Source: Triglochin maritima (lineage: Eukaryota > Streptophyta > Magnoliopsida > Alismatales > Juncaginaceae). Taken from it: a stretch of 64,000 nucleotides of DNA. Below are positions 1 through 62,653 of the stretch, one piece after another. The position numbers and the translations under genes are program-made. The stretch spans positions 2,492,501 to 2,556,500 of the forward strand of contig OY821790.1 of NCBI GenBank assembly GCA_963682175.1, read 5' to 3'. Position 1 is the stretch's first letter. Each line of letters starts with the position of its first letter. The notes beneath the pieces were generated by a model. It had not been told where the DNA came from. It saw only the letters and a list, made by a program, of their open reading frames with translations, and made no database searches.

Positions 1-1330
1 GACCGTTCATCCTATCTATTTTGCCTGTTAGAAATCAGTCGACCGACATATACATTTTGTTCGACCGTTTCTTCATATCTTGTTTTACTGTTATATTTCG
101 ATCGACCGAAATAGTTGTTCTGTTCGACCGTTTCACCTTGTCGAGTGAGAAATTATTTTACCAAATACAAATCTTTCAGCCTATCTCTTATCGACACGTG
201 TCCTCTGAGTGGGACTTTCGGTCGACCGAAAGTTCATATCTGTTCGACCGATTGTTTTCCGTATTTGTATTTATTATTACTGTTATACTTGTCGTATACT
301 CCAATGGTCGTATACACATTTTCCTAACTAACCCAAGTTTGGATTTAGTGTTTCAGTCAACCGGACTTCCCTTTACGGTCGACCGTCTTGATTCTTCCCT
401 GTCTCATTTTTACTGGGCATTTTCGGTCGAACTTTGCACTTACCTCGTTCGACCGATTACACTTGTTGTTATCGGGTCTTAAATCAAACATGTCAACCGG
501 TCGACCGAAACTCTATTCACGATCGACCGAAACTTAAGTCTTTTCCAGACCCAGTGCTACTATCTCTTTTCGGTCGAACTGGTATTCCAAACCGTTCGAC
601 CGATCACTTAAGTTCGAGCCAAGTTGGATCGACCGTTAGCATCTTCGTTCGACCGAACCAAGCACTGCTTATAATCGGTCGACCGTGTAACGCGATCCGG
701 TCGACCGTTTGTCGCTAGAAATCTGTCCTGCAATTTCTGATTTGTGTTTTCTTACACATCTTTCCATCACTTCAATCCCAACGGCTAGAACTTATTTGGA
801 GCTTATAAATAGAGCTTAGAACACTCATACAAGGTCACCAATCTTTCTCTAAGTTCAAAATCTCATTACTACTTCCAAATTGCTCTAAACCCTTGTGCTC
901 ATAATCTTCTCACTTGAAACCATCTTCATTAGATTGCATCATCCATTTCAAGTGCCAAGATTAGTTGCTGAAGTTTTATTCTTCAAGAGTTGTACAAGCT
1001 TCCGGAGTGAAGCTCTTCTCGGGTTGTGAGAAGGTGGTCCAAGCAAGGCGAGGGTGTTCGCAAAGCTTGTGGTGTAAAGGCGTGATCTCGGCCCGCAACG
1101 GAGATCGGATTAGTGGAGGACGCGAAGTTGCTCGAGTAAGAGCAATTCCTAAGAGAGGACTAGGATCCGGTGGTTGGATCCAAACCTCTATACACCCGGA
1201 GTAGTGGTTTGTTTGTTCTCTCTTTAATATTATTGTTTGATCTTTGAATTTGGCATAGTTATCTTTATTACCGTAATTAGTCTATTCACCCCCTCCCCTA
1301 GTCTAAATTTAGGGGCTAGTAGATCCTACA
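1..1330 (+). repeat. LTR of a SIRE-like copia element, 3' part (family L1)
   Basis: The window opens inside the U3 of an LTR. U3 (1-720) is packed with TCGACCG-type palindromes, often in pairs 22 bp apart (for example 219 and 241, 676 and 698). A TATA box follows at 804-811. The R/U5 leader (about 1000-1210) contains 'aggcgagggtgttcgcaa', also seen in the other SIRE-like LTRs of this window. The LTR ends 'gatcctaca' at 1330. A reverse-strand relative lies at 34165-35552 and fragments at 37093-37758. No primer-binding site follows, so this is a 3' LTR, a solo LTR or a truncated piece. Translated frames here (repeated RSTD/FGRP words) are by-products of the palindrome, not genes. Confidence 0.75.
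804..811 (+). promoter_or_regulatory. TATA box of the L1 LTR
   Basis: TATAAATA sits between the palindrome-rich U3 and the conserved R/U5 leader, the usual place of an LTR promoter. An mRNA start about 30 bp downstream is inferred. Confidence 0.55.
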
Positions 1331-1334
1331 CGAA

Positions 1335-2275
1335 GTCGGTCTAAAATGTGTCCAGAATAAGTCTAGAATCGTGTCCATAAAGAATGTGTCCAGAATCAGT
1401 CCAGATTGTGTCCAGAATCAGTCCATAATGTGTCCAATCCAGAAAGGACATAGTTCTGGACACGCTTGTCCAAACTCAGTCCAAAATGGACATAGTTCTT
1501 GACTCTATCCAAACTTAGTTCAGAACTGTGTCCATTCTGGATGAGTCAGGATTGAGTCAGGACTGAGCTTAGACAAGCGTGTCTAGAACCGTTTCCATTC
1601 TGGACGAGTCTGGATTGAGTCTAGACGGATTGTGGACAAGCGTTTCCAGAACTATGTCCATTCTGGATAGAGTTTGGAAAGAGTTTGGACGAGTCTGGAT
1701 GGAATCTGGACGAGTCTGGAAGTGTTTGGACAGAGTCTGGACTGAGTTTGGAGGAGTTTGGACAGAGTCCAGAACTGTGTCCATTCTGGACTGAGTTTGA
1801 ACAAGCGTGTCTAGAACTGTGTCCTTTCTAGAAGAGTTTGGACACACTATAGATTGATTCTGGACACAATCTGGACTGATTCTGGACACATTCTTTATGG
1901 ACACGATTCTGGACTTATTCTGGACATGAATTTGCACACGATTTTGGACTGAATCTTGACAAGATTTTGGACACGATTCTGGACTGACTCTGGACATGAT
2001 TCTGGACACTATCTAGACAGATTCTGGACACATTCTTTATGGACACGATTCTAGACTGACTTTGTACACGATTCTGGACACGATTCTGGATTGATTCTAG
2101 ACACATTATGGACTTACTTTGAATACGATTCTGGACACGATTTTGGACTAAATTTGGACAAACTCTGGACTAAGACTAGACACGATTCTGGACACACTAT
2201 GGACACCATTTTAGACTAAATTTGGACTGATTCTGGACTAACTTTGGATACGATTCTGGACACGAATGTGAACAG
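1335..2275. repeat. Degenerate TCTGGAC / GTCCAGA repeat field
   Basis: About 940 bp consist of diverged short words built on TCTGGACA or its complement, at irregular spacings of roughly 12-25 bp. The left part (about 1340-1450) carries mainly the GTCCAGA orientation. After a mixed zone (about 1450-1560) nearly all copies read TCTGGAC. It starts directly after the L1 LTR end. Long open frames through it encode only low-complexity SRMDTVLD/VQNQS-type peptide and are not credible genes. I do not recognise the repeat. Confidence 0.8.
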
Positions 2276-7563: not shown

Positions 7564-7790
7564 GGTGCCCAATCGGGGATCATCGCTGGCACAACATCAG
7601 CGGCATTGTCGGCACAACATCGGCGGTACAACATACATCCGACACAACATCGGACGGTACAACCACAAGTCAGAACATCGTCGGCACCATCATCGCCTGC
7701 AAAACCTCGGCGGCATCGCCGACACAACCTTGGCGGTACAGCATACGTCCGGCACAACATCGGACGGATCCAGACCGTAGTCTGTAGGGT
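7564..7790. repeat. Minisatellite of CGGCACAACAT-like units
   Basis: Imperfect direct repeats built on 'cggcacaacatcggcggtac', with roughly 10-45 bp periodicities (7590-7640, 7690-7770). Both strands stay open through it only because of this composition. Confidence 0.6.
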
Positions 7791-9927: not shown

Positions 9928-10423
9928 TGTTGTTGTTTACCTTGAATATGTGTTTAAAGTATTAATGCAGAAAACCAGACGATCGGTCGACCAGAAGAAG
10001 TGTTTCGGTCGACCAGATGTGTGTTGGATTGTCCAGCAAAGTGTCTGTCGTTTTTTGGTCGACCGGAATCTAGGATTCGGTCGACCGGGCACACAATTGG
10101 AGTTGGGCAAAAGTTACTGTCAATTTTCGGTCGACCGGAAACATTCGAGGAGCTGGGAGAAAAGTGCTTGTTGAATTTCGGTCGATCGGAACTTAAGTGT
10201 ACGGTCGACCGCGTATGCACTCGCGCAAGCCAGAAAAGTTTCTGTCGTTTTTCGGTCGACCGGTACTCCAATTTCGGTCGACCGGTAAAAGCTGGTTCGC
10301 GATACGGTTATTGGATCGGTCGACCGAAGCACCCGTTTGGTCGACCGTTTGGACCCAGTTCTGCCCACGTTTTGCATATTTCTCCACACGATTTTGGTGC
10401 AATTAATACTTGTTTAGGCCTAC

Positions 10424-10431
10424 TATATAAA
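10424..10431 (+). promoter_or_regulatory. TATA box of element A 5' LTR
   Basis: TATATAAA lies downstream of the palindrome cluster. The same box is kept in the 3' LTR at 15349-15356. Confidence 0.7.
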
Positions 10432-10492
10432 GGCAATTTCGTTCCCATTTGTTTAAGGTTAATTCATATTGTCTACTTTGCATTCTTGAGAG

Positions 10493-10496
<4 letters not shown>

Positions 10497-10535
<39 letters not shown>
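10497..10535 (+). repeat. (AG)n microsatellite in element A leader
   Basis: About 19 AG units in the transcribed leader. The 3' LTR has a much shorter tract (about 15421-15439), so it changed after insertion. Confidence 0.85.
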
Positions 10536-10536
<1 letters not shown>

Positions 10537-10804
10537 ATCCTTGTGATTCGGTGGGAGAGATTTGAGCCGGGTTTATTTCGTCGGTTCGTTCGCGTCTCCT
10601 GTAAGCATCTCTTGTAATACGTTTCTTTATAGTGGATTTGGAGTTGTGTCGTCCGTGGTTTTTCCCTGATTGGATTTCCACGTTAATCTTGCGTGTTTTG
10701 TGTGGTTTGGATTTTGGATTTGCGTTTTATTCTCAAGTTTAGCCAATTGGATTTGCGATTTCTGTTCGGCTGCGTATTTGAGATTGGTTTTAATTCCTAA
10801 CAAC

Positions 10805-10816
10805 TGGTATCAGAGC
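10805..10816 (+). promoter_or_regulatory. Primer-binding site (initiator tRNA-Met type)
   Basis: TGGTATCAGAGC, the standard plant copia primer site complementary to the 3' end of initiator tRNA-Met, two bases after the LTR end. Confidence 0.9.
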
Positions 10817-10865
10817 ATTTGGTCTGAATTTTAGGGATTTTTCATCAATCTTTTGTCAAGTACAC

Positions 10866-13800
10866 ATGGCGAATCATTGGAAGATTGAGAAGTTGAGCCG
10901 AGATGTGAATTTCGGTTTGTGGCAAGTCAAGATGCATGCAATTCTGGTGCAGCAAGAGGTGGAGGACGTTCTTGAGGGTAAGGGCAAGTTGCCAAAAGAA
11001 ATGTCCGATCAAGATAGGCAAAAGCTTGATCGTAAGGCGATGTCAACAATTAAGTTATCGCTGTCTGACGAAGTTCTGAGAGAAGTGATGAAGGAGAAGA
11101 CGATTGCAAGTATGTGGAAGAAATTAGAAGAAGTCTACATGAAGAAGTCACTTGCAAACCGGATTATCTTGAAGAAGAAGTCGTTCCTATTCAAGATGAA
11201 GTCGGGTATCTCCCTTCAACAACACTTGGATGATTTCAATGCAATCATCATGGACTTGGAGAAGGTTGAAGTAAGGTTTTCTGATGAGGATCAGGCGATC
11301 CTTTTACTTTGCTCGATGAGTTCTTCATATGATCACTTCATGGAGACGATGATGTATAGCAGGACCGACATCTCTCTTGCGGATGTCAAAAACGCACACT
11401 CCTCCAAATCTGATATGGAGAAGAGGTCTGATGGTTCTGAGTCAAGCAAAAGTGAAGCACTTGTTGCTCGTGGTAAGGGGAAAGAGAGGAGTTTCTCAAA
11501 GAACACCTCTAAGACCAAGTCGAGGGACAAAGATATTATTTGTCATTACTGCAAGAAGAAGGGTCACAAGATATCAGAATGTTTTAAGCTACAGAACAGA
11601 GAGAAGCAAAGGGGTTCTAGTAGTGGTGATCAGTCAGGTTCGAATGTTGCGGAGTCTGATTCTGATTTTGTGTTGGCAGCTACAGGTTCTTCTGAAGCTT
11701 CCGACGGTTGGGAGATTGACACGGGCAGCACATTCCACTTAACTCCGAATAAACACTGGTTTTCATCTTATGAAACAATGTCAGGTGGAATGGTTGTGAT
11801 GGGCAATGGTGACAGGTGTGAGGTTGCAGGAATTGGTTCTGTCAGATTGAGGACCCATGATGGCCTAGTCAAGATTTTATCGGATGTGCGACATGTTCCG
11901 AAGGCGAACAAGAATCTGATTTCAGTAGGTAGCCTAACTGCAATGGGTTACAAATTCAGTGGTGAGGATGACTGCATATCCATCACCAAAGGATCACTTA
12001 TTCTGATGAAGGGGAAGAAGCTTGGACCCGGCAAACTTTATATGCTTAAAGGAGAAACGGTTGTGGGTGACGCAGTTGTAGCGTCATCGTTGTCTGGTGA
12101 GGAGAATGCACAACTTTGGCATATGAGATTGGGGCACATGAGCGAGAAAGGCATGGCAGTGTTGAACAAACGTGGTTTGTTTGGAAGTCAGAAAATCGGC
12201 AGTCTGGACTTCTGTGAATTTTGTGTTTTTGGGAAGCAGAAGAGGGTTAGCTTCTCAGCAGCTAAGCACACCACCAAGACCACTTTAGATTATGTCCATT
12301 CTGATTTATGGGGACCTTCTCAGGTTCCATCAAAAGGTGGAGCTCGCTACATGCTCACATTTATTGATGATTTCTCCAGGAAGACTTGGGTTTATATTCT
12401 GAAACAAAAGAGCGATGTGTTTCAGAATTTTCAGCACTGGAAGGTTATGATTGAGAATCAAACAGGAAAGAAAATTAAGGTTCTAAGGACGGATAATGGT
12501 TTGGAGTTTTGTTCCTCAGAGTTTAACGATTTTTGCAAGGATGAAGGAATCGTGAGACACCGAACCGTACGTCACACACCACAACAGAACGGAGTAGCGG
12601 AACGTCTGAATCGAACTCTCTTGGAGAGAGCTAGATGTATGCTTCTGAATGCTGACCTGACTAAGGATTTTTGGGCAGAAGCAGTGTGTACCGCTTGTTA
12701 TTTGGTGAACCGTTCACCTCACACTGTTTTGGATATGAGAACACCGGAAGAAGTTTGGACAGGTGGAGCTTCAGATTTGTCCAAGTTAAGAGTCTTCGGT
12801 TGTCCAGCGTACGCACATGTAGATCAAGAAAAGTTGAATGCTCGGTCGTTGAAATGTATATTCCTTGGCTACGATTTGGGTGTGAAGGGTTATCGACTGT
12901 GGTGCAAGGAATCTCAGAAGCTCATGGTTGAAAGAAATGTTGTCTTTAATGAGCTTGCTATGTTACCTTCCAGGAAAGACACTGTTATTTCTACTCCCGT
13001 GTCAAGTGGGACTCCAGTTCAGGTGGAGCCACCGGTAGTGACTGTTGATGAGGATACCGGTGTGACACAAGGAGAGAGTTCAAAATCTGAGGAAGATGAA
13101 GAGTATTTGTTGGCAAGGGACAGAGAGAGGCGGCTGACCAAGAAACCCCGTAGATATGTCGAATCAGTCCTTGCATATGCTCTTAGTGCAACTGGAGATA
13201 TTAGAGCCTCTGGTGAGCCGAGCAAGTATTCAGAGGCAATTTTGGCACCCGATTCAGCTGCTTGGGTGGGTGCAATGAATGAAGAGATAGAGTCTCTTCA
13301 CAAGAACCAAACTTAGAAGTTGGTAGAACTTCCAAAAGGAAAAAGGGTCGTTAGCTGCAAATGGGTCTTCAAGAAGAAAATCAAGGGTCTCTCAGATGTA
13401 AGGTACAAAGCTCGATTGGTTGCTCGTGGTTTTAGTCAGGTGTAGGGTGTGGATTATAGCGATATTTTCTCACCCGTTGTGAAGCATACTTCTATTCGTG
13501 TTTTGTTGAGTTTGGTTGCAATTCATGATTTACAGTTAGAGCAACTAGATGTGAAGACCGCTTTCCTACATGGAGAATTAGAGGAGCAAATTTACATGTC
13601 CCAGCCGGAGGGCTTTGTGGTCGAGGGTAAGGAGAATCAGTTTTGTTTGCTGAAGAAGTCGTTTTATGGGTTAAAGCAGTCACCTCGACAATGGTATAAA
13701 AGATTTAATTCTTTTATGGTTGGACATGGGTACAACAGGTCCCAGTATGACTGCTGCGTTTACCGAAAGGTATTTTCATATGGCTCTCTCGTTTTGTTAT

Positions 13801-14771
13801 TACTCTATGTAGATGATATGTTGATAGCAGCTAAGGACAAGTCTAAAATTTCTGAGCTTAAGGAGTTGTTAAAGGCTGAGTTCGAGATGAAGGATCTCGG
13901 ATCAGCAAAGAGGATTCTAAGTATAGAGATACGTCGCGATCGTACATGCAAGAGTTTGTTTCTCTCCCAGCAGCAATATATTGAGAAAGTCTTGCATCGT
14001 TTTGGCATGGAGGATGCCAAGTCTGAAAGAATTCCTCTCGCCGTGCATTTTAAGCTCTCGGTAGACTTGTGTCCCAAGAAGGAGGAGGATAAGGCATACA
14101 TGTCACGTGTGCCTTATACTAGTGCAGTTGGCAGTTTGATGTATGCTATGATATGCACTTGTCCAGATATAGCTCAGGCAGTTTGTGTGGTGAGCCGCTA
14201 TATGTCGAATCCAGGAAAGGAGCATTGGTCAGCTGTGAAGTGGATTCTCCGGTATCTAAAAGGTACAACTAAGCTATCTCTGAAATTTGGTCGATCTTCG
14301 TATTCGTTAATGGGGTTTGTTGATGCCGATTACGCGGGAGACCGCGATAGACGAAGATCTATGACTGGTTATGTGTTTACTGTTGGGAGCACGGCTATTA
14401 GCTGGAAAGCGACGCTGCAACACATTGTTGTTTTGTCTACAACGGAGGCAGAGTATATGGCAGCTACCGAGGGTATCAAGGAAGCTCTTTGGCTGAAAGG
14501 TTTATTTGGAGAGCTTATTCCAGGTCAGAATACAGTGGTTGTTTATTGTGATAGTCAGAGTGTCATTCATCTGACGAATGATCAGATGTATCACGAGAGG
14601 ACGAAGCATATCGACGTCCGTTATCACTTCAATTGGGAAGTTGTTGTTGAAGGAGGTGTAGTGGTGAAGAATGTGGGCACTGAAGATAATCTGGTTGATA
14701 TGTTAACGAAGCCAGTTATTTCGACTAAGTTCATGGTATGCGTGAACTTGGTTGGTTTGAGTTCCGAGTAG
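10866..14771 (+). pseudogene. Copia gag-pol polyprotein with two in-frame TAG codons
   Basis: One reading frame of 1,302 codons. Gag with zinc knuckle CHYCKKKGHKISEC lies near 11545-11590. The aspartic protease (WEIDTGSTFHLT) is near 11710. The integrase has its HHCC finger (LWHMRLGHM...CEFCVFGK), core DDE residues in HSDLWGP, RTDNGLEF and NGVAERLNR, and spans about 12100-12960. Reverse transcriptase shows QLDVKTAFLHGELEE, FYGLKQSPRQWYK and the catalytic YVDD (about 13807). RNase H shows FVDADYAGD, STTEAEYMA and YCDSQS. The frame is broken by TAG at 13314-13316 (a Trp is expected) and TAG at 13443-13445, both at the start of reverse transcriptase. Both are explicable as single C-to-T or G-to-A changes. 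Without readthrough no reverse transcriptase is made, so the copy is probably defective, though it could be mobilised in trans. Confidence 0.93.
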
Positions 14772-14837
14772 GTGGAGCTAAGACGACGACACAATGAGGA
14801 AGGAAGTGTTCCTTCAAAGATTTCTGGGGGCTATTCA

Positions 14838-14853: not shown

Positions 14854-15708
14854 TGTTGTTGTTTACCTTGAATATGTGTTTAAAGTATTAGTGCAGAAAA
14901 ATAGACGATCAGTCGACCGGAAGGAGTGTTTCGGTCGACCGGATGTGTGTTGGATTGTCCAGCAAAGTGTTTGTCGTTTTTCGGTCGACCGGAATCTAGG
15001 ATTTGGTCGACCGGGCACACAATTGGAGTTGGGCAAAAGTTACTGTCGATTTTCGGTCGACCGGAACCTTGGATTCAGTCGACCGGAAACATTCGAGGAG
15101 CTGGGAGAAAAGTGTGTTGAATTTCGGTCGACCGGAACTTAAGTGTACGGTCGACCGCGTATGCACTCGCGCAAGCCAGAAAAGTTTCTGTCGTTTTTCG
15201 GTCGACCGGTACTCCAATTTCGGTCGACCGGTAAAAGTTGGTTCGCGATACGGTTATTGGATCGGTCGACCGTTTGGACCCAGTTCTGCCCACGTTTTGC
15301 ATATTTCTCCACACAATTTTGGTGCAATTAATACTTGTTTAGGCCTACTATATAAAGGCAATTTCGTCCCCCTTTGTTTAAGGTTAATTCCTATTGTCTA
15401 CTTTGCATTCTTGAGAGAAAAGAGAGAGAGAGAGAGAGCACATCCTTGTGATTCGGTGGGAGAGATTTGAGCCGGGTTTATTTCGTCGGTTCGTTCGCGT
15501 CTCCTGTAAGCATCTCTTGTAATACGTTTCTTTATAGTGGATTTAGAGTTGTGTCGTCCGTGATTTTTCCCGCATTGAGTTTCCACGTTAAATCTTGCAT
15601 GTTTTGTGTGATTTGGATTTTAAATTTGCGTTTTGTTCTAAAATTTAACCAATTGGATTTGCGATTTCTGTTCGGCTGCGTATTTGAGATTGGTTTTAAT
15701 TCCTAATA
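14854..15708 (+). repeat. 3' LTR of element A
   Basis: 855 bp. Relative to the 5' LTR it has one extra palindrome unit at 15054-15075 and lacks one near 15263. It ends CCTAATA where the 5' LTR has CCTAACA, so the terminal CA has become TA. The CATAC duplication follows. Confidence 0.92.
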
Positions 15709-34164: not shown

Positions 34165-35552
34165 TGTAGGATCTAACTAGCCCTAGAATTAGTCTAAAGG
34201 AGGGTGAATAAACTAAATGTACTCTTAAAAACTTAAGCAAGTAATACAATAGAACAATAATAATATAAAGTCAGAGAGTGAGAAATGCAAATCACAACAC
34301 TGATGTATAGAGGTATAAATTCCCAAACTGGATCCTAGTTATCTCTTACAAATTGCTCCTTCTTGAGCAACTTCGTGTTTTCCACTAATCCGTCTTCCCG
34401 TTCCGGACTGGGAGATCTTGCCTTTACACTTCAAGCTTGCGAATACCCTAGCCAAGGTTGAACCACCTTCTCACAATCTGGGAATAACATCACTCCGGAA
34501 GCTATTACAACACTTTGTAGAAGATTTCTGATAAACACTTCTAATCTCAAGCACTTGAATGATTGGTGAAAGAAAAGAATGATTCAAGTGAAAAGATTAA
34601 TCATAAAGAGAAGTTTTAGAGCATAAGTAAGCAGTATGAATATGAGTTCTATGGAGAAAGGGTTGATAACTTTGTAAAGTTATTCTAGGCTCTATATATA
34701 GGACATAAACTTAATCTAGACGTTGAGATTGATCTGGTAAAGATTTGTGTAAGATACATAAAACAGAAAAGGGTAAAACTCAAATCTGGACACCAACGGT
34801 CAATCGGTACATGCAAAGTGGTCGACTGTTATCTTATAAATAAGAAAATGTTTGAGCTGAAGTACAAGCCGGTCAAACCAGTAAGGCTAGAACATGAGTG
34901 AACGGTCGAACATGGTATAAAGGCGATCGACCGTTCTGAAGGTTTTGGCAAGGAAAATAAAAAAGAAACGAGGTAACGGTCAAACACCACAGGAATCATA
35001 TCCAACCGAAAATATCAGGAACTTTTCAAGCACATGTTCGTCTACATCTGGTCGACCACCGTCGCATCGTTCGATCGGTGACCAAAAACAAATTAGGGGT
35101 TAGGTGAAATATATGTATACAACCATTGTAGAATATGACAAGTATAACAATTATATTAAATAAGTACGAGTGCAATGGTCGAACCAAAATAAATTTTTGG
35201 TCGACCGATTTGCACACTACTCACGACTTCAAACAACATGCTAACAATTGAATTGGAATGATAGATCAGTTGACCATTTTAAATAGGAACAAGAGTCTAT
35301 TAATTCAGTCAAACCAGATAGTCTACCGATCGACCGAATGTAGTAGAAACTCTGTTCCAAAGAGAATTTCTATGTGTAATCGGTCACATAAGAGAGTCGG
35401 TTTGATATGAAATTTTGTATGAGACTTATATAGGTTTTCTATGGACCATGCATTGTAAATCAATAAGAGTTCAAGCCCTAAGTTACATTTGAATCCTAAG
35501 TACAAGAAACATAAATCTTATACTATTCTTTAACTTTGATTTCTTGTCTTGT
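34165..35552 (-). repeat. L1-family LTR, reverse strand
   Basis: Read on the minus strand it is a relative of 1-1330 and ends TGTAGGATC at 34165 in plus coordinates. The R/U5 leader (about 34300-34520) and a degraded palindrome-rich U3 (34800-35340) are visible. It is interrupted on the right by the L2 LTR. Confidence 0.65.
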
Positions 35553-37092: not shown

Positions 37093-37758
37093 TATGTACA
37101 TATGTGCATATTGTAGGATCTAATAACCCAACAATTAGTCTAAAAGGAGGTGGTGAATAGACTAAAAGCACTCTTAAAACTTAAGCAAGTAAAACTATGG
37201 AATAATAACAAAATAAAGTTACAAAGTGAGAAACGCAAACCACAACACCAATGTATAGATGTTTGGATCCACCCACGGATCCTAGTCATCTCTTACGAAT
37301 TGCTCCTACTTGAGCAACTTTGCATTTTCCACTATCTTATTGATTTATATTTCTTGTACTTAGGATTCAAATGTAACTTGGGCACTTGAATTCTTATTCA
37401 TTCACATTGTATGGTTCATAGAAAACCTATAGAAGTCACTTGCAAAATTGCATATCAAACCGACTCTCTTAGGTGATTGAATACACGTAGAAATTTCCTT
37501 GGAACAGAGTTTCTGCTCCAGTCGGTCGACTGGTACAATATCTGGTTCGATTGAATTTAACACTCTTGTTCCTTCTCAAAGCGGTCGACCGATCTTTTAT
37601 CCTAGTTCGACCGTTAGCTTATGTTGTTTGAAGTCACGATTAGTGTGCAAATCAGTCGACCGAAGACTAATTTTGGTTCGACTGTAGTACACTTCATATT
37701 TGTCTTTAATATGACTGCTATACTTGTAGTATTCTACAACTGTCATATATACATTCTT
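37093..37758. repeat. Chimeric fold-back L1 LTR fragments
   Basis: 37093-37340 is the L1 3' end in reverse orientation (like 34165-34400). At 37341 it switches to L1 U3 in forward orientation, the reverse complement of the 35525-to-about-35100 region. The joint is therefore head to head, not a normal LTR. Confidence 0.6.
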
Positions 37759-38993
37759 TGTTGGATCGTATGGGGCTTAGTTTTAATCACTTTTAACCTT
37801 AACTACCTACTTGTTTAATCAATCAAAGAATGCATAGCGGAATTAAAACAAATAAACAAGCAAGCAAGGTAAAAGGAAGGAAATATGCAAACCACAAAGA
37901 GACGGGGGATTTTTATAGAGGTTCGGCACCCCACCCGGGTCCTAGTTCTCTCTTGCAAGCTCCGCTCAGATCACCGAGCTCCGCTAACGACTTCAGTAAC
38001 CACTCCTCGTACCGGGCCGGGAGAGAACACCTTTACAAGTCTTCAAGCTTGCGAACAACCCTTGCCGAGCTTGACTCCTCCTCTCACAATCCGAGAGGGA
38101 TACTTCGGGCTTTCACCGAAACCTTTACTTGACTTTGACAACAATAAACTTGAGTGAGACAATTACTCTCTAAACTTGAGAACACTTAACAAATATTTGG
38201 CTATGATCAAAGGTGTGGAATTTAGGCTTAGAGTGTAGGATTGAGAAATTTGGAGCTTGGGAGTTTCTCTCTAGTGTATATGACAAATGGAAGTGTGAGA
38301 GGTGTCTAATTGTGCCATGGGAACACCTATTAATAGAGTCCTAAGGTGTTATAGCCATTGGGGGTTAAGTGTGGTAAGTTGTTGTGTAAGAAACACAATA
38401 GAAATCTGTAGCACACATTTCAGAACAAATTCGGTCGACCAGATGGGTCAAATGGTCGACCGTTTGGAAATTTGGAACTCCGTTTGGTCGACCGATAAAG
38501 GTGTGGTCGACCAGATAAGGCTATAACTTAGGTACACTTAAGTTAGCGGTCGAACACTGAATAAGGTTCGGTCGACCGAAAACTAACATGCTCTACGGGG
38601 TTGACAAACATGATCATATTCGGTCGACCGAAACAAGGTCCACGGTCGACCAAAAACCAACAAGCAGTTTGGGTTTGTCGAGACATCTTCAATTCGATCG
38701 ACCGAATAAGGTCCTCGGTTGACCGATAGGAAAAATATTTTGGGCTATTTGTAAATAATACGAATACGACTGTTGGTATTATACGACAATTCTAATGGTC
38801 GGAAATTTATGTTACACGGTCGACCAAAACCGGGCAGTAAAACACTAACTGGATAATTGATTACTCGGTAGACAGTTCAGGTTAAGTGTTTAGTGGTTTC
38901 CAGTCTAAGTTTGAGTGATCTATTGAAGTCCAAATTATATGAAATTTTGTGTGTGACTTCTATAGGGAACCTAGTGTGTTTTTGAGTAGATTT
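37759..38993 (-). repeat. LTR of gag-only family, reverse strand, interrupted
   Basis: Starts (plus coordinates) TGTTGGATCG with the conserved U5/R leader (37880-38110) and a palindrome-rich U3 (38430-38840). It is cut at 38993 by a second LTR of the same family. The flank GATTT (38989-38993) may be one copy of that insertion's target duplication. Confidence 0.65.
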
Positions 38994-40309
38994 TGTTGGA
39001 TCATATAGGTCGGCTATGCTAATCACTTTTAATCTAATTACCTACTTGTTTAAACAATCAAAGATATGCAGCGGAATTTAAAACAAACAAGCAAGTGAAG
39101 GGAGAATAAAACAAACCACAATGGACACGGGGGATTTTTATAGAGGTTCAACACCCCACCCGGGTCCTAGTCCTCTTTTGCAAGCTCCGCTCGGATCACC
39201 GAGCTCCGCTCACGACTTCACTAACCACTCCCCGTTCCGGGCCGGGAGAGAACGCCTTTACAATCTTCAAGCTCGCGAACAACCCTCGCCGAGCTTGGCT
39301 CCACCTCTCACAATCCGAGAGGGATGCTTCGGGCTTTCACCGAAACCTTTACTCTTCTTTGACAGCAACAAACTTGAGTGGGACAATCACTCTCTAAACT
39401 TGAGCACACTTGAGAAGGATTGGAATTGATCTTAAGTGTGGAAATTGGAGGCTTGGAGTGTTTGGGATGATCTCTCTAATGTAGGAGGCAAATATGTGTG
39501 GGAGAGTTGTGTTAAAATGTGTTTTAGAACTCTATTTATAAGCATTATAGAGAATAAAGTCGTTGGGGTTGATTGGGTATGAGTTGGTGTAAGATACACA
39601 AAACAGAAACTTGTAGGACCCAATTCGGCCTAAAAACGGTCGACCGAAACGGGTATGTCGTTCGACCGTTTGGTCAACATTCAGCTTTGACTCAAGTTCA
39701 CTTAAGTTAACGGTCGAACGGGCTCAGGGGATTGGTCGACTGAATAAGTCCAGGCACTTCTGGGAGACCAAATTGTGTTGGTTCGGTCGACCGCTAGGAA
39801 AGTTTCGGTCCACCGGATGTTTGGTAATTTTGGGGTATTTGGGAATAATATGAATACGAACGTTGGGTATAATACGACAAAACAAACGGTCATGTGACAC
39901 GTGTGAACGGTCGACCGAAAATGTTTAAACGGTCGACCGATTTGGTCCAGGCAGTTCAAGTTTTGTTTAGGTGTTTTCCGGTTCTAGTTTGGATGATCTA
40001 TTGAAGTCCAAATTATGTGAAATTTTGTGTGTGACTTCTATAGGGAACCTAGTATGTGGTTGATTAGTTTTTAGCTCAAGTATGCTCAATTACACAAGGT
40101 TCCTAAAGACTCAAAGAAATACATGACTTCAAATGAGCTTGATTACATGTCTTGACTTGATTTCCTTTCTTCCTTGAGTCTTGATCACCTGTAGAAGTTA
40201 GCACAAAACAATATATATGCAATGCAACATGTGTGCTACTCTACATGACCATAATTAAGATTAGGTTGATTAAATCATCAAAACATAGATTAAGGCCAAA
40301 AAGCCAACA
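38994..40309 (-). repeat. 3' LTR of a reverse-strand gag-only element
   Basis: 1,316 bp from TGTTGGC (40309) to the CCAACA end (38994). A reverse TATAAATA lies at 39533-39540. Palindrome pairs include 39908/39930 (22 bp). The adjoining 'aaaaggggagat' on its upstream side is the purine tract. It belongs to the same family as 43322-48586. Confidence 0.8.
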
Positions 40310-43321: not shown

Positions 43322-44765
43322 TGTTGGCGTTTTGACATTAATCTATGTTTTGATGATTTAATCAACCTAATCTTAATTATGATCATGTAGAGTAGCACAC
43401 ATATTGCTTTGCATATATATATTGTTTTGTGCTAACTTCTACAGGTGATCAAGACTCAAGGAAGAAAGGAAATCAAGTCAAGACATGTAATAAAGCTCAT
43501 TTGAAGACATGTAATTTTGCATTTCTTTGAGTCTTAAGAACTTTGTGTAATTGAACATAATTGAGCTAAAAACTACTCAAACACACACTAGGTTCCTTAT
43601 AGAAGTCACACAAAAAACATCATATAATTTGGACTTCAATAGATCACCCAAACTTAGACCGGTAAACACTAAACCAAAACCTAAACAGTCTGCTCACATT
43701 CGGTCAACCGAGTGATCATATATTATGTTAGTGTTTTACTGCCCAAGTTCCGTCGACCGTCCAGACCTTTTCGGTCGACCGAGTCAACATATTTTTCCGA
43801 TCGTTTGTTTTGTCGTTTATACCCAACGGTCGTATTCGTATTATTTCTAAATACCCCAAATACATTTAGAGTATCGGTCGACCGAACTAAGATATCTCGA
43901 AAAACCTAGAATGCCTGTTGAAATTCGGTCGACCGTGGATCTTGTTTCGGTCGATCGAATATGATCTTGTTTGTCAACCTTGTAGAGCCTGTGATAAATC
44001 GGACGACCGAACCTATGTCGGTGTTCGACCGATAACTTAAGTGTACATAGAACATAGCCTTTGACGGTCGACCGTTCCCTAATCGGTCGACCGAACTAAG
44101 TTCAAATTTGCCAAATGGTCGACCGTTCAACCCGATCCGGTCGGCCGAACTTATCCAGAGTTGGGTCATACAAGTTTCTATTTTGTGTATCTTACACCAA
44201 CTCTTACCTAATTAACCCCAACGGCTATATTCTCTCTAGTGCTTTGTAAAACACATTTTAACACAACTCTCCCACTACTATTTGTCCAACACATTAGAGA
44301 GAAACTCCCAAGTCTCCCAATCCCTAAATCCTACTCTCCAAGCTTAAACTTCCACATCTTAGCTTCAATTCCACATCCCAAGCTAAGTGTGCTCAAGTTA
44401 GAGAGTGTGTGCCACTCAACATTGTTGTCCAAGGAAGCAAGGACTTCAGTGAAAGCCCGAAGTGTTCCTATGGGATTGTGAGAGAAGAAAGTCAAGCTCA
44501 CGAGGGTGTTCGTGGAGCTTGTTTTTTAAAAGGCTTAATCTAGGCCCGGAACGAGGTTGATAGTGAAGACGCGAGTGGAACTCGAGGGAGATCGAGCAAA
44601 GCTTGCAAGAGAGGAAGTAGGCGGGAGGCCGAACCTCTATAAAATCCGGTGTCACCAGTGTGGTTTGCTTTACTTGCTTGTTTTTGTTTATTTCCGCTGC
44701 ATATCTTTGATTGTTTAAACAAGTATGTAATTAGTTTAAAATGATTAGAATAAGAGACCATCCCA
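43322..44765 (+). repeat. 5' LTR of element B
   Basis: 1,444 bp starting TGTTGGC. U3 palindromes lie at 43700-44150. Relative to the 3' LTR it lacks about 11 bp containing the TATA box (near 44240) and one 21-bp palindrome unit near 43875. Confidence 0.88.
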
Positions 44766-47111: not shown

Positions 47112-48586
47112 TGTTGGCTTTTTTGCCTTAATCTATGTTTTTATGATTTAATCAACCTATCTTAATTATGATCTTGTAGAGTAGCACACATATTGCTTTG
47201 CATATATATTGTTTTGTGCTAACTTCTACAGGTGATCAAGACTCAAGGAAGAAAGGAAATCAAGTTAAGACATGTAATAAAGCTCATTTGAAGACATGTA
47301 ATTCACATTTCTTTAAGTCTTAGGAACTTTGTGTAATTGAGCATACTTGAGCTAAAAACTACTCAAACACACACTAGTTTCCTTATAGAAACACACACAA
47401 AATTTCATATAATTTGGACTTTAATAGATCACCTAAACTTAGACTGCTAAACACTAAACCAAAACCTAAACAGTCTGCCCACATTCGGTCGACCGAGTGA
47501 TCATATATTATGTTAGTGTTTTACTGCCCAAGTTCGGTCAACCGTCCAGACCTTTTCGGTCGACCGAGTCAACATATTTTTCCAATCGTTTGTTTTTTCG
47601 TTTATACCAACGGTCGTATTCGTATTATTTCTAAATACCCCAAATCAATTTAGAGTATCGGTCGACCGAGGACCTTGTTCGGTCGACCGAACTAAGACAT
47701 CTCGACAAACCTAGAATGCATGTTGAAATTCGGTCGACCGTGGATCTTGTTTCGGTCGACCGAATATGATCTTGTTTGTCAACCCTGTAGAGCCTGTGAT
47801 AAATCGGTCGACCGAACCTATCTCAGTGTTCGACCGATAACTTAAGTGTACCTAGAACATAGCCTTTGACGGTCGACCGTTCCTTAATCGGTCGACCGAA
47901 CTAAGTTCAAATTTGCAAAATGGTCGACCGTTCAGCCGGATCCGGTCGGCCGAACTTATCCAGAGTTGGGTCATACAAGTTTCTATTTTGTGTATCTTAC
48001 ACCAACTCTTACCTAATTAACCCCAACGGCTATATTCTCTCTAGTTCTTATAAATAAAGTTGTAAAACACATTTTAACACAACTCTCCCACTACTATTTG
48101 TCAAATACATTAGAGAGAAACTCCCAAGTCTCTCAATCCCCAAATCGTACTCTCCAAGCTTAAACTTTCACATCTTATCATCAATTCCACATCCCAAGCT
48201 AAGTGTGCTCAAGTTAGAGAGTGTGTTCCACCCAACATTGTTGTCCAAGGAAGCAAGGACTTCGGTGAAAGCCCGAAATGTTCCTCTGGGATTGTGAGAG
48301 GAAAGTCAAGCTCACGAGGGTGTTCGTGGAACTTGTTTTTTAAAAGGCTTAATCTCGAGCCGGAATGAAGTTGATCGTAAAGACGCGAGCGGAACTCGAG
48401 GGAGATCGAGCGGAGTTTGCAAGAGAGGAAGTAGGCCGGAGGCCGGACCTCTTTAAAATCTGGTGTCACCATTGTGGTTTTCTTTACTTGCTTGTTTTTG
48501 TTTAATTCTGCTGCATATCTTTGATTGTTTAAACAAGTAGGTAATTAGTTTAAAAGTGAATAGAATAAGAGAGCCTCACGATCCCA
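47112..48586 (+). repeat. 3' LTR of element B
   Basis: 1,475 bp. Palindrome pairs include 47535/47557, 47659/47680 and 47731/47753. An intact TATAAATA is at 48049-48056. The conserved leader spans about 48250-48480. The end is set at CCCA (48586) by comparison with the 5' LTR, with a small indel near the end. Confidence 0.85.
48049..48056 (+). promoter_or_regulatory. TATA box in element B 3' LTR only
   Basis: TATAAATA. The corresponding place in the 5' LTR has lost it by a deletion of about 11 bp. Confidence 0.7.
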
Positions 48587-54261: not shown

Positions 54262-55890
54262 TGTTGGCTTTTTGGCCTTTAATCTTAATTTGGATGATTA
54301 ACAAAATAATATTATGCACATCTTCAATTAGAACATCACACACATCATACTGTCAAATTGCATAGATATTGTGTATTCCTAACAATGTAGGTGATCAAAC
54401 CAAAGGACTAATCAACTTCAAGATCAAGGCTCATGACTTGTAATCAAAGCTCAAGGACTTCATATGTAATTTTCTATTTATTTGAGTTATAGGATCAAAT
54501 GTACACTTGATGCACAAAAGATAAACTCGTCTCTGTTGGTCGACCGTTTGCCTCTCGGTCTACCAAACCTGTTCCCAACGGATGACCGAGTGACTCTCGG
54601 TGAACCGTGTTCCTAGAGTCAGTAATGACTTGATCTTCCTGGAAACCTTGTGTCGGTTTGCCGACCTTACCCGGTCAACCGTTTCCTTATCCCCAGTAGC
54701 TTCGAAATTTCTCTGGATATCTCTATTCGGTGTACCAAACGAGTATCGGTCATCCGAACATCACTTGTGTCTTTTGGCCTAAACGATTTCATCTTATTGG
54801 CCCACGTGGCACAAACTAACTCCAACAAACTTATCTTTTGTCGTTTCGCAACAAGCTTTGAAACGTCCATATCGGTCTACCGATTAATTGAAACGTCCAT
54901 ATCGGTCTACCGATTACCCTTCGGATTACCGAAGGCTTGTTGTCAATCAAAACGTAATGGCTATTTTTCCACGTAATATTTCAACCGTTATCGATAAACC
55001 ACTTTCCCAGGCAATGTCAGCAGAAAACCCGCACATGTATCGGTCAACCAACCTTTCCACACGGTATACCAAACAAGATCACCAAGTCACAACAATTCTT
55101 TACTGTCCAATTGGAACGGTGAACCGAAGTGTTCTCGGTCAACCAAATTTAATTGCTCAATATTAGGAAAAACTTACTGGAAGTTGGTGAACGGTTATCC
55201 GACCTATAGTCGATCAACTGAGTGCTTCATTCTGACCAATTAACCCACTTTATGTCGAACGACCGTTGGTCTCCCGGTCGGCCGAAGTTGCCCCGAATTC
55301 TGCCCGAGCTTAAGTCACATCTTGTTTCTTATTGGTCCAAACCTCACCAACTTACCATAATGGCTCTATTTGTTTTGAAGACTATATAAGCTTCACTTAA
55401 GAGACACATTCACTTCTCTTCTTTCCAAAAATCAATCCTACTCTTGTGCTCTCAATCTTCAAGCCTTCAAAGCTCCACCAACTCTCAAACTTCAATTAAA
55501 TTCACTCCAAGCTTAATTCCAATCCTTGAGTGCATTCAAGTTAGAGTTCAACAATCTCATTCAATTTCCATTGTGTTCTAAAGCTTCGAGGAAGCACCCT
55601 CTCGGGTTGTGACAGGAGATCCCAGCAAGGCGAGGGTGTTCGCAAGGCTCCGATTGTAAGAGGGTTTATCTTCGACCCGAAACGAAGATAATAGTGAATT
55701 CTTAAGTAGGGATCAGAGGATCGATCGAAACTTGAGGAGAGTACTAGATCACGGTGGTGTGATCGAACCTCTATAAATCTCCGGAGTCATCTTGTGGTTT
55801 GCATTCTTTCTCTTACTATTTTAATTGTGCAATTGTTTAAGAAAATTAGGACATAATCAATTCGTTCCCTCTAGATTAGTGATCGATCAA
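54262..55890 (+). repeat. 5' LTR of SIRE-like copia element C
   Basis: Starts TGTTGGCTTTTTGG. U3 (54535-55290) contains many decayed GGTCGACC-like sites (CGGTCTACC, CGGTCAACC, CGGATTACC), typically in pairs 19 bp apart (54537/54556). TATATAAG is at 55384-55391 and the conserved leader at about 55600-55790. The end is set by the primer site. Confidence 0.75.
55384..55391 (+). promoter_or_regulatory. TATA box of element C LTR
   Basis: TATATAAG downstream of the paired-site U3. Confidence 0.6.
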
Positions 55891-58785: not shown

Positions 58786-59403
58786 CAAATAGTCGTTGAG
58801 TACAACGGTCAAGTGTCACAAGTAAATAGCCGTTCGACACCTAAAGCGAAGAAGGACTCGGTTGAGCAATAGTCATTCCGTCATCCGAAAAAAGTAAAAT
58901 CAATTGGGCTCTAAGGCTCGATTCAAATGTGACCGTTGAAGCAAAGTCCAAAAATGGTCCAAGACTATTCGGTCGACCAAAGGTGTTTCACTCGTCCGTT
59001 GGGACAATTCCAGAGAGCATCCTATGTTTTACTGATGGGAAGGATTTGGTCATCCGATAGGTGTTTGGTGGACCGAACTAGAAATGTTTTGGTTGATTGT
59101 GAAGGGTTTGGTTTACCGAATCTAGACGGGATATAATCCTAGTGCTCAAGTTTACATAAAACTTTATGGACTCAATTAATATAAAATTACATGTCTTGGT
59201 CCAAAGCTTTGATTACAAGTCTTGATGTCTTTGTCCTAATGCTCATTTTCTTGATTTTCTTGATCAACCTATTAAGATGATTGCAAGTATACAAGTATGT
59301 ATGCAATGCATGTAATCGTGTTGGCTCACTTTGATTGATTAAAATTAGTTTGATTAATCATCAAAATTAATATAGATTAATGACAAAACCAATAGTATCA
59401 ACA
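58786..59403 (-). repeat. Truncated L2 LTR in copy 2
   Basis: Only the first 618 bp (U3 side, reverse strand) of the 1.5-kb L2 LTR is present; the rest is missing because copy 2 begins here. Confidence 0.75.
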
Positions 59404-59436
59404 CTTGTCTCATGAAATGATTAGTAAAACAAAATA

Positions 59437-60102
59437 TATGTACATATGTGCATATTGTAGGATCTAATAACCCAACAATTAGTCTAAAAGGAGGTGGTGA
59501 ATAGACTAAAAGCACTCTTAAAACTTAAGCAAGTAAAACTATGGAATAATAACAAAATAAAGTTACAAAGTGAGAAACGCAAACCACAACACCAATGTAT
59601 AGATGTTTGGATCCACCCACGGATCCTAGTCATCTCTTACGAATTGCTCCTACTTGAGCAACTTTGCATTTTCCACTATCTTATTGATTTATATTTCTTG
59701 TACTTAGGATTCAAATGTAACTTGGGCACTTGAATTCTTATTCATTCACATTGTATGGTTCATAGAAAACCTATAGAAGTCACTTGCAAAATTGCATATC
59801 AAACCGACTCTCTTAGGTGATTGAATACACGTAGAAATTTCCTTGGAACAGAGTTTCTGCTCCAGTCGGTCGACTGGTACAATATCTGGTTCGATTGAAT
59901 TTAACACTCTTGTTCCTTCTCAAAGCGGTCGACCGATCTTTTATCCTAGTTCGACCGTTAGCTTATGTTGTTTGAAGTCACGATTAGTGTGCAAATCAGT
60001 CGACCGAAGACTAATTTTGGTTCGACTGTAGTACACTTCATATTTGTCTTTAATATGACTGCTATACTTGTAGTATTCTACAACTGTCATATATACATTC
60101 TT
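59437..60102. repeat. Copy 2 of the fold-back L1 fragments
   Basis: Same head-to-head joint as 37093-37758. Confidence 0.6.
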
Positions 60103-61337
60103 TGTTGGATCGTATGGGGCTTAGTTTTAATCACTTTTAACCTTAACTACCTACTTGTTTAATCAATCAAAGAATGCATAGCGGAATTAAAACAAATAAA
60201 CAAGCAAGCAAGGTAAAAGGAAGGAAATATGCAAACCACAAAGAGACGGGGGATTTTTATAGAGGTTCGGCACCCCACCCGGGTCCTAGTTCTCTCTTGC
60301 AAGCTCCGCTCAGATCACCGAGCTCCGCTAACGACTTCAGTAACCACTCCTCGTACCGGGCCGGGAGAGAACACCTTTACAAGTCTTCAAGCTTGCGAAC
60401 AACCCTTGCCGAGCTTGACTCCTCCTCTCACAATCCGAGAGGGATACTTCGGGCTTTCACCGAAACCTTTACTTGACTTTGACAACAATAAACTTGAGTG
60501 AGACAATTACTCTCTAAACTTGAGAACACTTAACAAATATTTGGCTATGATCAAAGGTGTGGAATTTAGGCTTAGAGTGTAGGATTGAGAAATTTGGAGC
60601 TTGGGAGTTTCTCTCTAGTGTATATGACAAATGGAAGTGTGAGAGGTGTCTAATTGTGCCATGGGAACACCTATTAATAGAGTCCTAAGGTGTTATAGCC
60701 ATTGGGGGTTAAGTGTGGTAAGTTGTTGTGTAAGAAACACAATAGAAATCTGTAGCACACATTTCAGAACAAATTCGGTCGACCAGATGGGTCAAATGGT
60801 CGACCGTTTGGAAATTTGGAACTCCGTTTGGTCGACCGATAAAGGTGTGGTCGACCAGATAAGGCTATAACTTAGGTACACTTAAGTTAGCGGTCGAACA
60901 CTGAATAAGGTTCGGTCGACCGAAAACTAACATGCTCTACGGGGTTGACAAACATGATCATATTCGGTCGACCGAAACAAGGTCCACGGTCGACCAAAAA
61001 CCAACAAGCAGTTTGGGTTTGTCGAGACATCTTCAATTCGATCGACCGAATAAGGTCCTCGGTTGACCGATAGGAAAAATATTTTGGGCTATTTGTAAAT
61101 AATACGAATACGACTGTTGGTATTATACGACAATTCTAATGGTCGGAAATTTATGTTACACGGTCGACCAAAACCGGGCAGTAAAACACTAACTGGATAA
61201 TTGATTACTCGGTAGACAGTTCAGGTTAAGTGTTTAGTGGTTTCCAGTCTAAGTTTGAGTGATCTATTGAAGTCCAAATTATATGAAATTTTGTGTGTGA
61301 CTTCTATAGGGAACCTAGTGTGTTTTTGAGTAGATTT
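60103..61337 (-). repeat. Copy 2 of the interrupted gag-only-family LTR
   Basis: Equivalent to 37759-38993, with the same leader and palindrome cluster (60775-61165). Confidence 0.65.
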
Positions 61338-62653
61338 TGTTGGATCATATAGGTCGGCTATGCTAATCACTTTTAATCTAATTACCTACTTGTTTAAACA
61401 ATCAAAGATATGCAGCGGAATTTAAAACAAACAAGCAAGTGAAGGGAGAATAAAACAAACCACAATGGACACGGGGGATTTTTATAGAGGTTCAACACCC
61501 CACCCGGGTCCTAGTCCTCTTTTGCAAGCTCCGCTCGGATCACCAAGCTCCGCTCACGACTTCACTAACCACTCCCCGTTCCGGGCCGGGAGAGAACGCC
61601 TTTACAATCTTCAAGCTCGCGAACAACCCTCGCCGAGCTTGGCTCCACCTCTCACAATCCGAGAGGGATGCTTCGGGCTTTCACCGAAACCTTTACTCTT
61701 CTTTGACAGCAACAAACTTGAGTGGGACAATCACTCTCTAAACTTGAGCACACTTGAGAAGGATTGGAATTGATCTTAAGTGTGGAAATTGGAGGCTTGG
61801 AGTGTTTGGGATGATCTCTCTAATGTAGGAGGCAAATATGTGTGGGAGAGTTGTGTTAAAATGTGTTTTAGAACTCTATTTATAAGCATTATAGAGAATA
61901 AAGTCGTTGGGGTTGATTGGGTATGAGTTGGTGTAAGATACACAAAACAGAAACTTGTAGGACCCAATTCTGCCTAAAAACGGTCGACCGAAACGGGTAT
62001 GTCGTTCGACCGTTTGGTCAACATTCAGCTTTGACTCAAGTTCACTTAAGTTAACGGTCGAACGGGCTCAGGGGATTGGTCGACTGAATAAGTCCAGGCA
62101 CTTCTGGGAGACCAAATTGTGTTGGTTCGGTCGACCGCTAGGAAAGTTTCGGTCCACCGGATGTTTGGTAATTTTGGGGTATTTGGGAATAATATGAATA
62201 CGAACGTTGGGTATAATACGACAAAACAAACGGTCATGTGACACGTGTGAACGGTCGACCGAAAATGTTTAAACGGTCGACCGATTTGGTCCAGGCAGTT
62301 CAAGTTTTGTTTAGGTGTTTTCCGGTTCTAGTTTGGATGATCTATTGAAGTCCAAATTATGTGAAATTTTGTGTGTGACTTCTATAGGGAACCTAGTATG
62401 TGGTTGATTAGTTTTTAGCTCAAGTATGCTCAATTACACAAGGTTCCTAAAGACTCAAAGAAATACATGACTTCAAATGAGCTTGATTACATGTCTTGAC
62501 TTGATTTCCTTTCTTCCTTGAGTCTTGATCACCTGTAGAAGTTAGCACAAAACAATATATATGCAATGCAACATGTGTGCTACTCTACATGACCATAATT
62601 AAGATTAGGTTGATTAAATCATCAAAACATAGATGAAGGCCAAAAAGCCAACA
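61338..62653 (-). repeat. Copy 2, 3' LTR of the reverse-strand gag-only element
   Basis: Equivalent to 38994-40309. It carries three of the four substitutions seen between the copies (61545, 61971 and 62635). Confidence 0.8.

What the first reader, a model, noticed from the sequence alone, without database searches (positions are those of the whole stretch)
1..62300. Paired palindrome module CGGTCGACCG-N12-CGGTCGACCG across several LTR families
Seen directly: the 10-bp palindrome CGGTCGACCG, or a near copy, fills about fifteen clusters (1-710, 8062-8560, 9984-10350, 14910-15275, 38430-38840, 39640-39950, 43700-44150, 47480-47960 and others). Sites come as pairs whose starts are 22 bp apart, while the 12-bp spacer sequence varies freely. 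Checked examples: 219/241, 676/698, 8063/8085, 9984/10006, 10056/10078, 10253/10275, 10317/10339, 38621/38643, 39908/39930, 47535/47557 and 47731/47753. The partner is often the variant TGTTCGACCG. Fixed spacing with free spacer sequence points to two protein dimers bound on one face of the helix (22 bp is about two turns). The clusters sit upstream of the TATA boxes in the U3 of both a Tork/Tnt1-like element and SIRE-like elements. Inference: a shared enhancer or silencing-related module that spread or converged between copia lineages. I do not know a described factor for it.
Basis: partly seen in the sequence, partly recalled or inferred. Interest (0 to 1): 0.87.

Follow-up and report, generated by a model that had tools for sequence, protein, structure and literature searches.

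The report
Helix-phased palindrome arrays in retrotransposon promoters
Unrelated families of plant jumping genes carry, in the control region at their ends, arrays of the same ten-letter palindrome, mostly spaced by whole turns of the DNA helix, which suggests that they recruit one and the same kind of DNA-binding protein.

Summary
The window holds 54 exact and 63 one-mismatch CGGTCGACCG sites (at most 0.4 and 2.6 expected). The 1.06-Gb plant genome holds 359,535 exact copies (90 for the reversed pattern) and 47,017 exact pairs 22 bp apart, against 607 for distances 26-30 together. The motif is not new: it is the Sirevirus 'repeated motif', reported with this decamer in a Vitis element (PMC2829016). 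Beyond what I read there: (1) adjacent sites keep whole helical turns, best period 10.4 bp, nothing at 11; clear in Sirevirus-like and copia B arrays, weak in the gypsy LTRs. (2) The arrays are not Sirevirus-specific: they lie in both LTRs of a Ty3/gypsy element and in a second copia lineage (window 9928-15706); with motifs masked no similarity was found across lineages. (3) In two LTR pairs the motif decays faster than its surroundings, yet between diverged LTRs it is the best kept part, which points to selection on replicating elements. Best reading: a U3 enhancer, a landing strip for a dimeric CGG-N4-CCG-binding protein used by several lineages. The protein is unknown.

The parts
1..707 (+). 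array of 18 sites in the 3' LTR of Sirevirus element A (LTR runs to 1330; element begins in the left flank L026)
   Evidence: sites; LTR pair -9018..-7246 / -439..1330 at 97%; PPT and PBS junction; copia gag/pol in L026
8063..8556 (-). array of 16 sites in an LTR fragment (matches between about 6892 and 8686) of Ty3/gypsy family C
   Evidence: sites; LTR homology to L006 72-81% in four pieces; L006/L008 are LTRs of an element whose interior L028 encodes gypsy gag-pol
9928..10800 (+). 5' LTR of copia element B; array 9984-10347 (11 sites), TATA near 10424
10794..14771 (+). B gag-integrase and RT reading frames (copia: Retrotran_gag_2, rve, RVT_2)
   Evidence: RT-RH 33% identical to Sirevirus A
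14854..15706 (+). 3' LTR of element B; array 14910-15272 (11 sites)
   Evidence: flanking repeat CATAC
34797..35336 (-). decayed array (8 sites) in a Sirevirus-like LTR
   Evidence: masked similarity to the A array, minus strand
37523..39939 (-). three site clusters (37523-37662, 38432-38875, 39637-39939) in Sirevirus-type LTRs
   Evidence: PPT octamers at 40609, 40561 and 40472, minus strand
43701..44147 (+). array (12 sites) in LTR 43322-44757 of a shortened Sirevirus
   Evidence: Sirevirus-like gag remnant 44816-45598
47486..47952 (+). array (13 sites) in LTR 47111-48572, probable partner of the previous LTR (91.8% alike)
   Evidence: PPT and LTR start
54537..55284 (+). degenerate CGGT-NN-ACCG-type array (13 sites) upstream of a PBS at 55899 and an A-like gag; not helix-phased (mean cosine 0.0, n=6)
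59867..62283 (-). near-identical second copy of the 37523-39939 clusters in a 5.1-kb duplication
   Evidence: 36442-41539 = 58786-63884 at 99.88%

Best explanation
Each array is a U3 enhancer made of several to about twenty binding sites for a sequence-specific protein that reads two inverted CGGT half-sites with exactly four bases between the CGG triplets (CGG-N4-CCG), hence most likely as a dimer. Neighbouring sites tend to keep the same face of the B-DNA helix, so that dimers can touch each other or a common co-activator; the 22-bp pair is the basic unit. In the copia LTRs the arrays lie upstream of a TATA-like box and most probably switch on, or keep open, the retrotransposon promoter. Unrelated LTR lineages (Sirevirus copia, another copia, Ty3/gypsy) have the same sites and so probably depend on the same trans-acting protein. 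Shown: motif, spacing, phasing (weak in gypsy beyond the pair), positions, lineages, selection pattern. Inferred: protein binding, dimer, activation, common factor. A guess: a plant LBD/AS2-type dimeric zinc-finger factor, the only class that I can name with a described caliper-like reading of palindromes; a lead, not a finding.
For: Half-site geometry: CGG-N4-CCG 184 times against 12 (N3) and 11 (N5) in 254 kb. Phasing: nonredundant adjacent distances of at least 26 bp, n=99, best period 10.44 bp (bootstrap 10.36-10.53; block bootstrap 10.34-10.56), mean cosine 0.44 at 10.5 and -0.04 at 11, largest of 500 nulls 0.25; by group 0.53 Sirevirus-like (n=36), 0.52 copia B (n=12), 0.58 NN-type (n=16). 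Exact decamers from the genome listing: best period 10.40, n=86 (overlaps L001-L006). Whole-genome peaks and troughs. Selection: between diverged LTRs motif divergence 10.3% against 25.5% outside; within the LTR pairs of A and B 6.8% against 1.3%; odds ratio 9.5, p=5e-8. Position: 76-119 bp upstream of a TATA-like box in 6 of 7 copia LTRs examined. No similarity across lineages with sites masked. No dyad in spacers and no compensatory change, which argues against an RNA-structure role.
Against: No binding, expression or methylation data. In the gypsy C LTRs the comb beyond the 21-22 bp pair is weak and not distinct from 11 bp (mean cosine 0.22 at 10.5 and 0.21 at 11, n=21); the NN group also has 0.33 at 11; the array at 54537-55284 is not phased. 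In gypsy LTR L006 no TATA follows closely, nor in LTR 43322-44757. Inside B the 72-bp unit is partly a tandem duplication, so part of its regularity is copying. Two of the four comparisons run as near neutral (D43/D47, D39/L027) show no excess decay of the motif and were not pooled. Distances of 18-20 and 24-25 bp, off whole turns, are also common.
Confidence: 0.62

Rival explanations
1. The arrays are landing sites for a TE-encoded (or TE-derived) anti-silencing protein, as YAGTATTAY arrays are for VANC21 in Arabidopsis VANDAL elements; other TE families exploit it.
For: Dense arrays of one short motif in non-coding TE parts, growth by tandem repeats, and a VANC6 motif shared with an unrelated TE are described for VANC (PMC5735166, passages). 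Motif CpGs decay by transitions after insertion (12 of 17 motif differences in the LTR pairs of A and B), as expected of methylated DNA that an active element would need to open.
Against: No such protein was looked for. VANC21 motifs lie in the same orientation and mainly in one family, whereas this motif is palindromic and in at least three lineages.
Confidence: 0.2
2. The arrays set nucleosomes (rotational positioning or a CpG platform for methylation); the 10.5-bp comb reflects the histone surface, not a site-specific dimer.
For: Period 10.4 bp and frequent 73-74 and 147 bp distances between sites (redundant counts) would suit nucleosomal DNA; three CpGs per decamer.
Against: From general knowledge nucleosomes read dinucleotides weakly; they would not preserve ten exact letters or the N4 half-site distance, nor unequal conservation of half-sites.
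Confidence: 0.09
3. The palindromes act in RNA: neighbouring copies pair into hairpins that feed small-RNA silencing or packaging.
For: Any two copies can pair; a 22-bp pair gives a 10-bp stem with a 12-nt loop. A link between Sirevirus LTR palindromes and small RNAs in maize is recalled; only search listings were seen.
Against: B-DNA period with no signal at 11 bp in the pooled data; in 45 pairs, 48 of 75 changed stem positions break the pairing and 1 of 4 double changes restores it; spacers show no dyad. No small-RNA data.
Confidence: 0.05
4. The spacing is only inheritance: one ancestral 73-bp tandem array was copied into all these LTRs and has not yet changed.
For: B contains a 72-bp tandem unit; related LTRs share spacer remnants.
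Against: Masked arrays show no similarity between Sirevirus, copia B, gypsy C and NN arrays at E 0.01; distances differ, in the pooled data by whole turns; the motif is kept while spacers diverge by about 25%.
Confidence: 0.04

Closest known systems
Sirevirus LTR repeated motif (RM), Bousios et al. 2010 (PMC2829016)
   Same: Palindromic CGG-CCG core, the very decamer CGGTCGACCG in the Vitis element, many copies in the upper half of the LTR, upstream of TATA (abstract, part 1 of 3 of section 4, and sections 9, 10, 12, 13, 19 read, passages of others).
   Different: There said to be Sirevirus-specific and absent from classic copia elements (30 studied); here also in a Ty3/gypsy element and in a second copia lineage. 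What I read of the paper says nothing on fixed spacing or helical phase; supplements were not seen.
VANC21/VANDAL21 motif arrays, Hosaka et al. 2017 (PMC5735166)
   Same: Dense short-motif arrays in non-coding TE DNA that grow by tandem repeats; a VANC6 motif also found in an unrelated TE (passages).
   Different: Other motif, same orientation rather than palindrome, DNA transposon with its own binding protein; no occurrence of the word 'spacing' in the main text.
LBD/AS2 transcription factors ('molecular calipers')
   Same: Dimeric zinc-finger-like domain said to discriminate palindromic DNA (second-hand, PMC10118128 passage).
   Different: No binding of CGGTCGACCG is known to me; the structural paper is not held.

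Membership tests
Sirevirus repeated motif (RM) | palindrome with CGG-CCG core, at least 8 copies per element | tested here: met
   sites with up to two mismatches per array: A 21 (5' LTR), B 11, C 17
Sirevirus repeated motif (RM) | a short distance upstream of a TATA box in the LTR | tested here: met
   76-119 bp in 6 of 7 copia LTRs (A, B, L009, three of four D); not seen in gypsy LTR L006
Sirevirus repeated motif (RM) | restricted to Sireviruses | tested here: not met
   C is Ty3/gypsy; B probably a different copia lineage
Sirevirus (element A) | several AGGGGGAG PPTs in the internal part | tested here: met
   4 octamers after the 5' LTR in L026, three of them within 150 bp of the 3' LTR
Sirevirus (element A) | AT/TG attachment site and CA-ATTGG-TATCAGAGC junction | tested here: inconclusive
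   junction CA-TTTGG-TATCAGAGT, two letters off; the AT is followed by CA in this copy, while the D elements have GAGATTG
Sirevirus (element B) | AGGGGGAG PPTs | tested here: not met
   0 octamers in 4,053 internal bases; AGGTTGAG before the LTR
Sirevirus (element B) | AT/TG attachment site and CA-ATTGG-TATCAGAGC junction | tested here: inconclusive
   GAGAT/TGTTG is present and the junction CA-ACTGG-TATCAGAGC is one letter off; these two do not exclude a Sirevirus
Sirevirus (element B) | place in the RT-RH clade | tested here: inconclusive
   33% identity to A over 431 residues; no tree with reference elements
Tork/Tnt1 lineage (element B) | position in the copia RT tree | not tested
   no reference sequences used
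VANC-like anti-silencing system | TE-encoded protein that binds the motif and removes methylation | not tested
   no candidate protein searched
LBD binding site | bound by an LBD dimer | not testable with these tools
   needs a binding assay

The most novel reading that the evidence does not exclude
A genome-wide shared cis-code: retrotransposons of both superfamilies, with nothing else detectable in common in their arrays, have converged on one site grammar and depend on one trans-acting protein, possibly an anti-silencing factor supplied by one of them. The genome's retrotransposon community would then be regulated as a unit.
Probability: 0.33. Interest if true: 0.9.

Novelty: new variant of a known kind. 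Interest (0 to 1): 0.72.

Why it matters
The 2010 report left the RM boxes of Sireviruses without a known reader, and I found none. Helical phasing and the N4 half-site rule turn 'repeats of unknown role' into a specific prediction (a dimer, same face, cooperative) that one pull-down and one reporter series can test. Occurrence in unrelated superfamilies would make this a natural experiment on how transposons converge on one host or transposon factor, and on why 360,000 CpG-rich sites persist although they decay fast after insertion.

Tried and rejected
Hairpin/dyad in the 12-bp spacers: 39 of 156 against 35.9 (s.d. 4.7) expected, none. Compensatory change between paired sites: none. Common origin of the arrays: masked blastn found no cross-lineage similarity. 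Half-site asymmetry: inner halves looked more degenerate (373 against 407 of 430 matches); after orienting the arrays the main feature is that the promoter-facing half of the promoter-side site is best kept (6 of 225 mismatches against 23, 23, 27); suggestive only. Rfam: no match. L024 as a gypsy LTR with array: a 463-bp array piece is repeated 5.9 kb apart in differing flanks, no clear LTR pair, not used as evidence. Paper searches: beyond PMC2829016, the listings gave nothing on the motif outside Sireviruses or on its reader (listings are capped, and the library lacks most subscription papers), so 'not in print' is not claimed. The species was not identified. A control palindrome (CGGACGTCCG) and the 34-38 bp trough could not be counted because the server was busy (102, 106, 109, 110, 112).
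Full report
WHAT IS THERE. The window lies in a 1.063-Gb genome, a plant by its sulfotransferase, MULE and LTR content (inference). CGGTCGACCG occurs 54 times exactly and 63 times with one mismatch in 64 kb, and 359,535 times exactly genome-wide, against 90 for the reversed pattern. Of 17 stretches of 10 kb taken at base 3,000,001 of C1 and C3-C18, 5 hold sites with up to one mismatch: the sites are clustered. Arrays (called from four sites up, gaps to 160 bp) hold 4-21 sites with up to two mismatches; 34 were found.

SITE. Half-sites are fixed: CGG-N4-CCG 184 times, CGG-N3-CCG 12, CGG-N5-CCG 11 in 254 kb (20 sources: window and L009-L027; L001-L008 were left out because they were picked by the pair). 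Of 149 CGGT-NN-ACCG sites 114 have CG in the centre; arrays in L017, L018 and L022 have a free centre. So the conserved thing is an inverted CGGT pair, and CGGTCGACCG is its commonest form.

SPACING. Exact pairs 22 bp apart: 47,017, of 100,280 at distances 10-40. Distances 26-30 together: 607; 31-33: 3,143; 45-48: 10,862, many of the listed ones being sums across an inner site; 50-53: 28,483. In ranges the tool seems to count one partner per start. In local data, nonredundant adjacent distances (one per spacer cluster and distance) follow a comb of 10.44 bp anchored at zero; n=170 in all and 99 from 26 bp up; 95% interval 10.36-10.53, by whole blocks 10.34-10.56; mean cosine 0.44 at 10.5, -0.04 at 11.0, 0.05 at 10.0; largest of 500 uniform nulls 0.25 (L007 and L008 dropped as repeats of L006). 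Exact decamers listed in the first 0.8 Mb of C1 give 10.40 bp, cosine 0.50 at 10.5 and -0.07 at 11 (n=86); L001-L006 come from the same stretch, so this set is only partly independent.

PHASING BY LINEAGE (distances of at least 26 bp, cosine at 10.5 / at 11): Sirevirus-like 0.53 / -0.27 (n=36); copia B 0.52 / -0.36 (n=12); NN-type 0.58 / 0.33 (n=16); other L024 arrays 0.50 / -0.24 (n=8); gypsy C LTRs 0.22 / 0.21 (n=21); degenerate array at 54.5 kb 0.00 / 0.40 (n=6). So the comb is clear in copia arrays; in the gypsy LTRs the 21-22 bp pair is present but phasing beyond it is not shown. The period is that of B-DNA; an RNA (A-form, about 11 bp) role does not predict it.

WHICH ELEMENTS. (A) A Sirevirus spanning the left window border: LTRs 97% alike, four AGGGGGAG octamers inside, junction CA-TTTGG-TATCAGAG, copia gag-pol. 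Its AT before the 3' LTR is not followed by TG in this copy, while the D elements show GAGATTG. The hallmarks were read in PMC2829016. (B) A 5.8-kb copia element at 9928-15706 with flanking repeat CATAC, LTRs 89% alike over the blast alignment with gaps and 96% without gaps; no AGGGGGAG in 4,053 internal bases and RT-RH 33% identical to A, but with GAGAT/TG and a junction one letter off the Sirevirus one. I take it for a different copia lineage; a tree with references would settle it. (C) A Ty3/gypsy element at C1:187960-196926: LTRs of about 2.19 kb without a difference, flanking ATCTA, PBS TGGTATCAGAGC, and RVT_1, RVP_2, Ty3_capsid and Integrase_H2C2 domains inside. The window cluster 8063-8556 lies in a diverged LTR of this family (72-81% in four pieces). 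L029, between another pair of listed sites 6.6 kb apart with the same spacer, is gypsy as well, 88% identical in pol to C. L015 holds a copia element and no decamer in its 10 kb, so the motif is not universal.

ORIGIN. With sites masked, arrays of A/D, B, C and the NN group show no similarity across lineages at E 0.01 (36 pairs found among 24 arrays, all within a lineage or among Sirevirus-like and unassigned arrays). The refutation 'copying of one array' therefore fails across lineages, though copying within families is plain (72-bp tandem unit in B).

SELECTION. In the LTR pairs of A and B the motif differs at 6.8% and other array positions at 1.3%; 12 of 17 motif differences are CpG transitions, so after insertion the motif decays fast, as methylated CpG would. 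Between diverged LTRs of one lineage the relation is reversed, 10.3% against 25.5% (five of eight comparisons pooled; in all eight the motif is below the rest; Fisher p=4.7e-8, odds ratio 9.5). Two further comparisons run as near neutral were not pooled (D43/D47: 5 of 110 against 15 of 336; D39/L027: 1 of 70 against 4 of 233) and show no excess. Gap columns were left out (up to 49 of 120 motif columns, B against L009). Sites were defined alike in both classes, but comparisons share sequences and are not independent, so the p value is only a guide.

POSITION AND POLARITY. The arrays end 76-119 bp before a TATA-like box in A, B, L009 and three of four D LTRs; in LTR 43322-44757 and in gypsy LTR L006 none follows closely. 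In 45 nonredundant oriented pairs the promoter-facing half of the promoter-side site is best kept (6 of 225 mismatches against 23, 23, 27).

MECHANISM. A dimer reading CGG-N4-CCG and stacking on one face of the helix upstream of the promoter explains half-site distance, phasing, free spacers and selection together. That it activates transcription is inferred from position and from selection in replicating lineages. The protein is unknown; the LBD family is a lead only (second-hand). A transposon-encoded anti-silencing protein, as in VANDAL elements, is the main alternative.

KNOWN AND NEW. Known: the motif and its place in Sirevirus LTRs, including this decamer in Vitis. Not met in what I read of that paper or in the search listings: helical phasing, occurrence in Ty3/gypsy, and the within/between contrast. 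The library is partial and the listings capped, so priority is not claimed.

Noticed in passing
window 36442-41539 and 58786-63884: A 5.1-kb stretch is repeated 22.3 kb downstream at 99.88% identity, a very recent duplication that carries three of the site clusters.
   Followed up: no
L024 690-1152 and 6561-7023: A 463-bp array piece is 99.4% identical in two places with sharp ends and different flanks, near gypsy pol; could be a separately moving or converted module.
   Followed up: partly
window 1345-2263: Degenerate tandem repeats with units such as TGGACACGATTCTGGAC just after the Sirevirus LTR.
   Followed up: no
L026 7200-8904: Site array (7200-7872) running into an ORF (7711-8904) with a PF20167 'putative plant transposon protein' match (47.4 bits, cut-off 45), after the pol of element A, where env-like genes sit in Sireviruses; fits the published RM copies upstream of ENV.
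   Followed up: partly
G000:C2: Contig of 152,656 bp, of the size of a plastid genome; not examined.
   Followed up: no
L022 869-1963: A LOB-domain (LBD) reading frame lies about 4 kb from a CGGT-NN-ACCG array; probably coincidence.
   Followed up: no
window 41239-42249: Sulfotransferase-domain reading frame of 336 codons, minus strand; its end overlaps the edge of the duplicated stretch.
   Followed up: no
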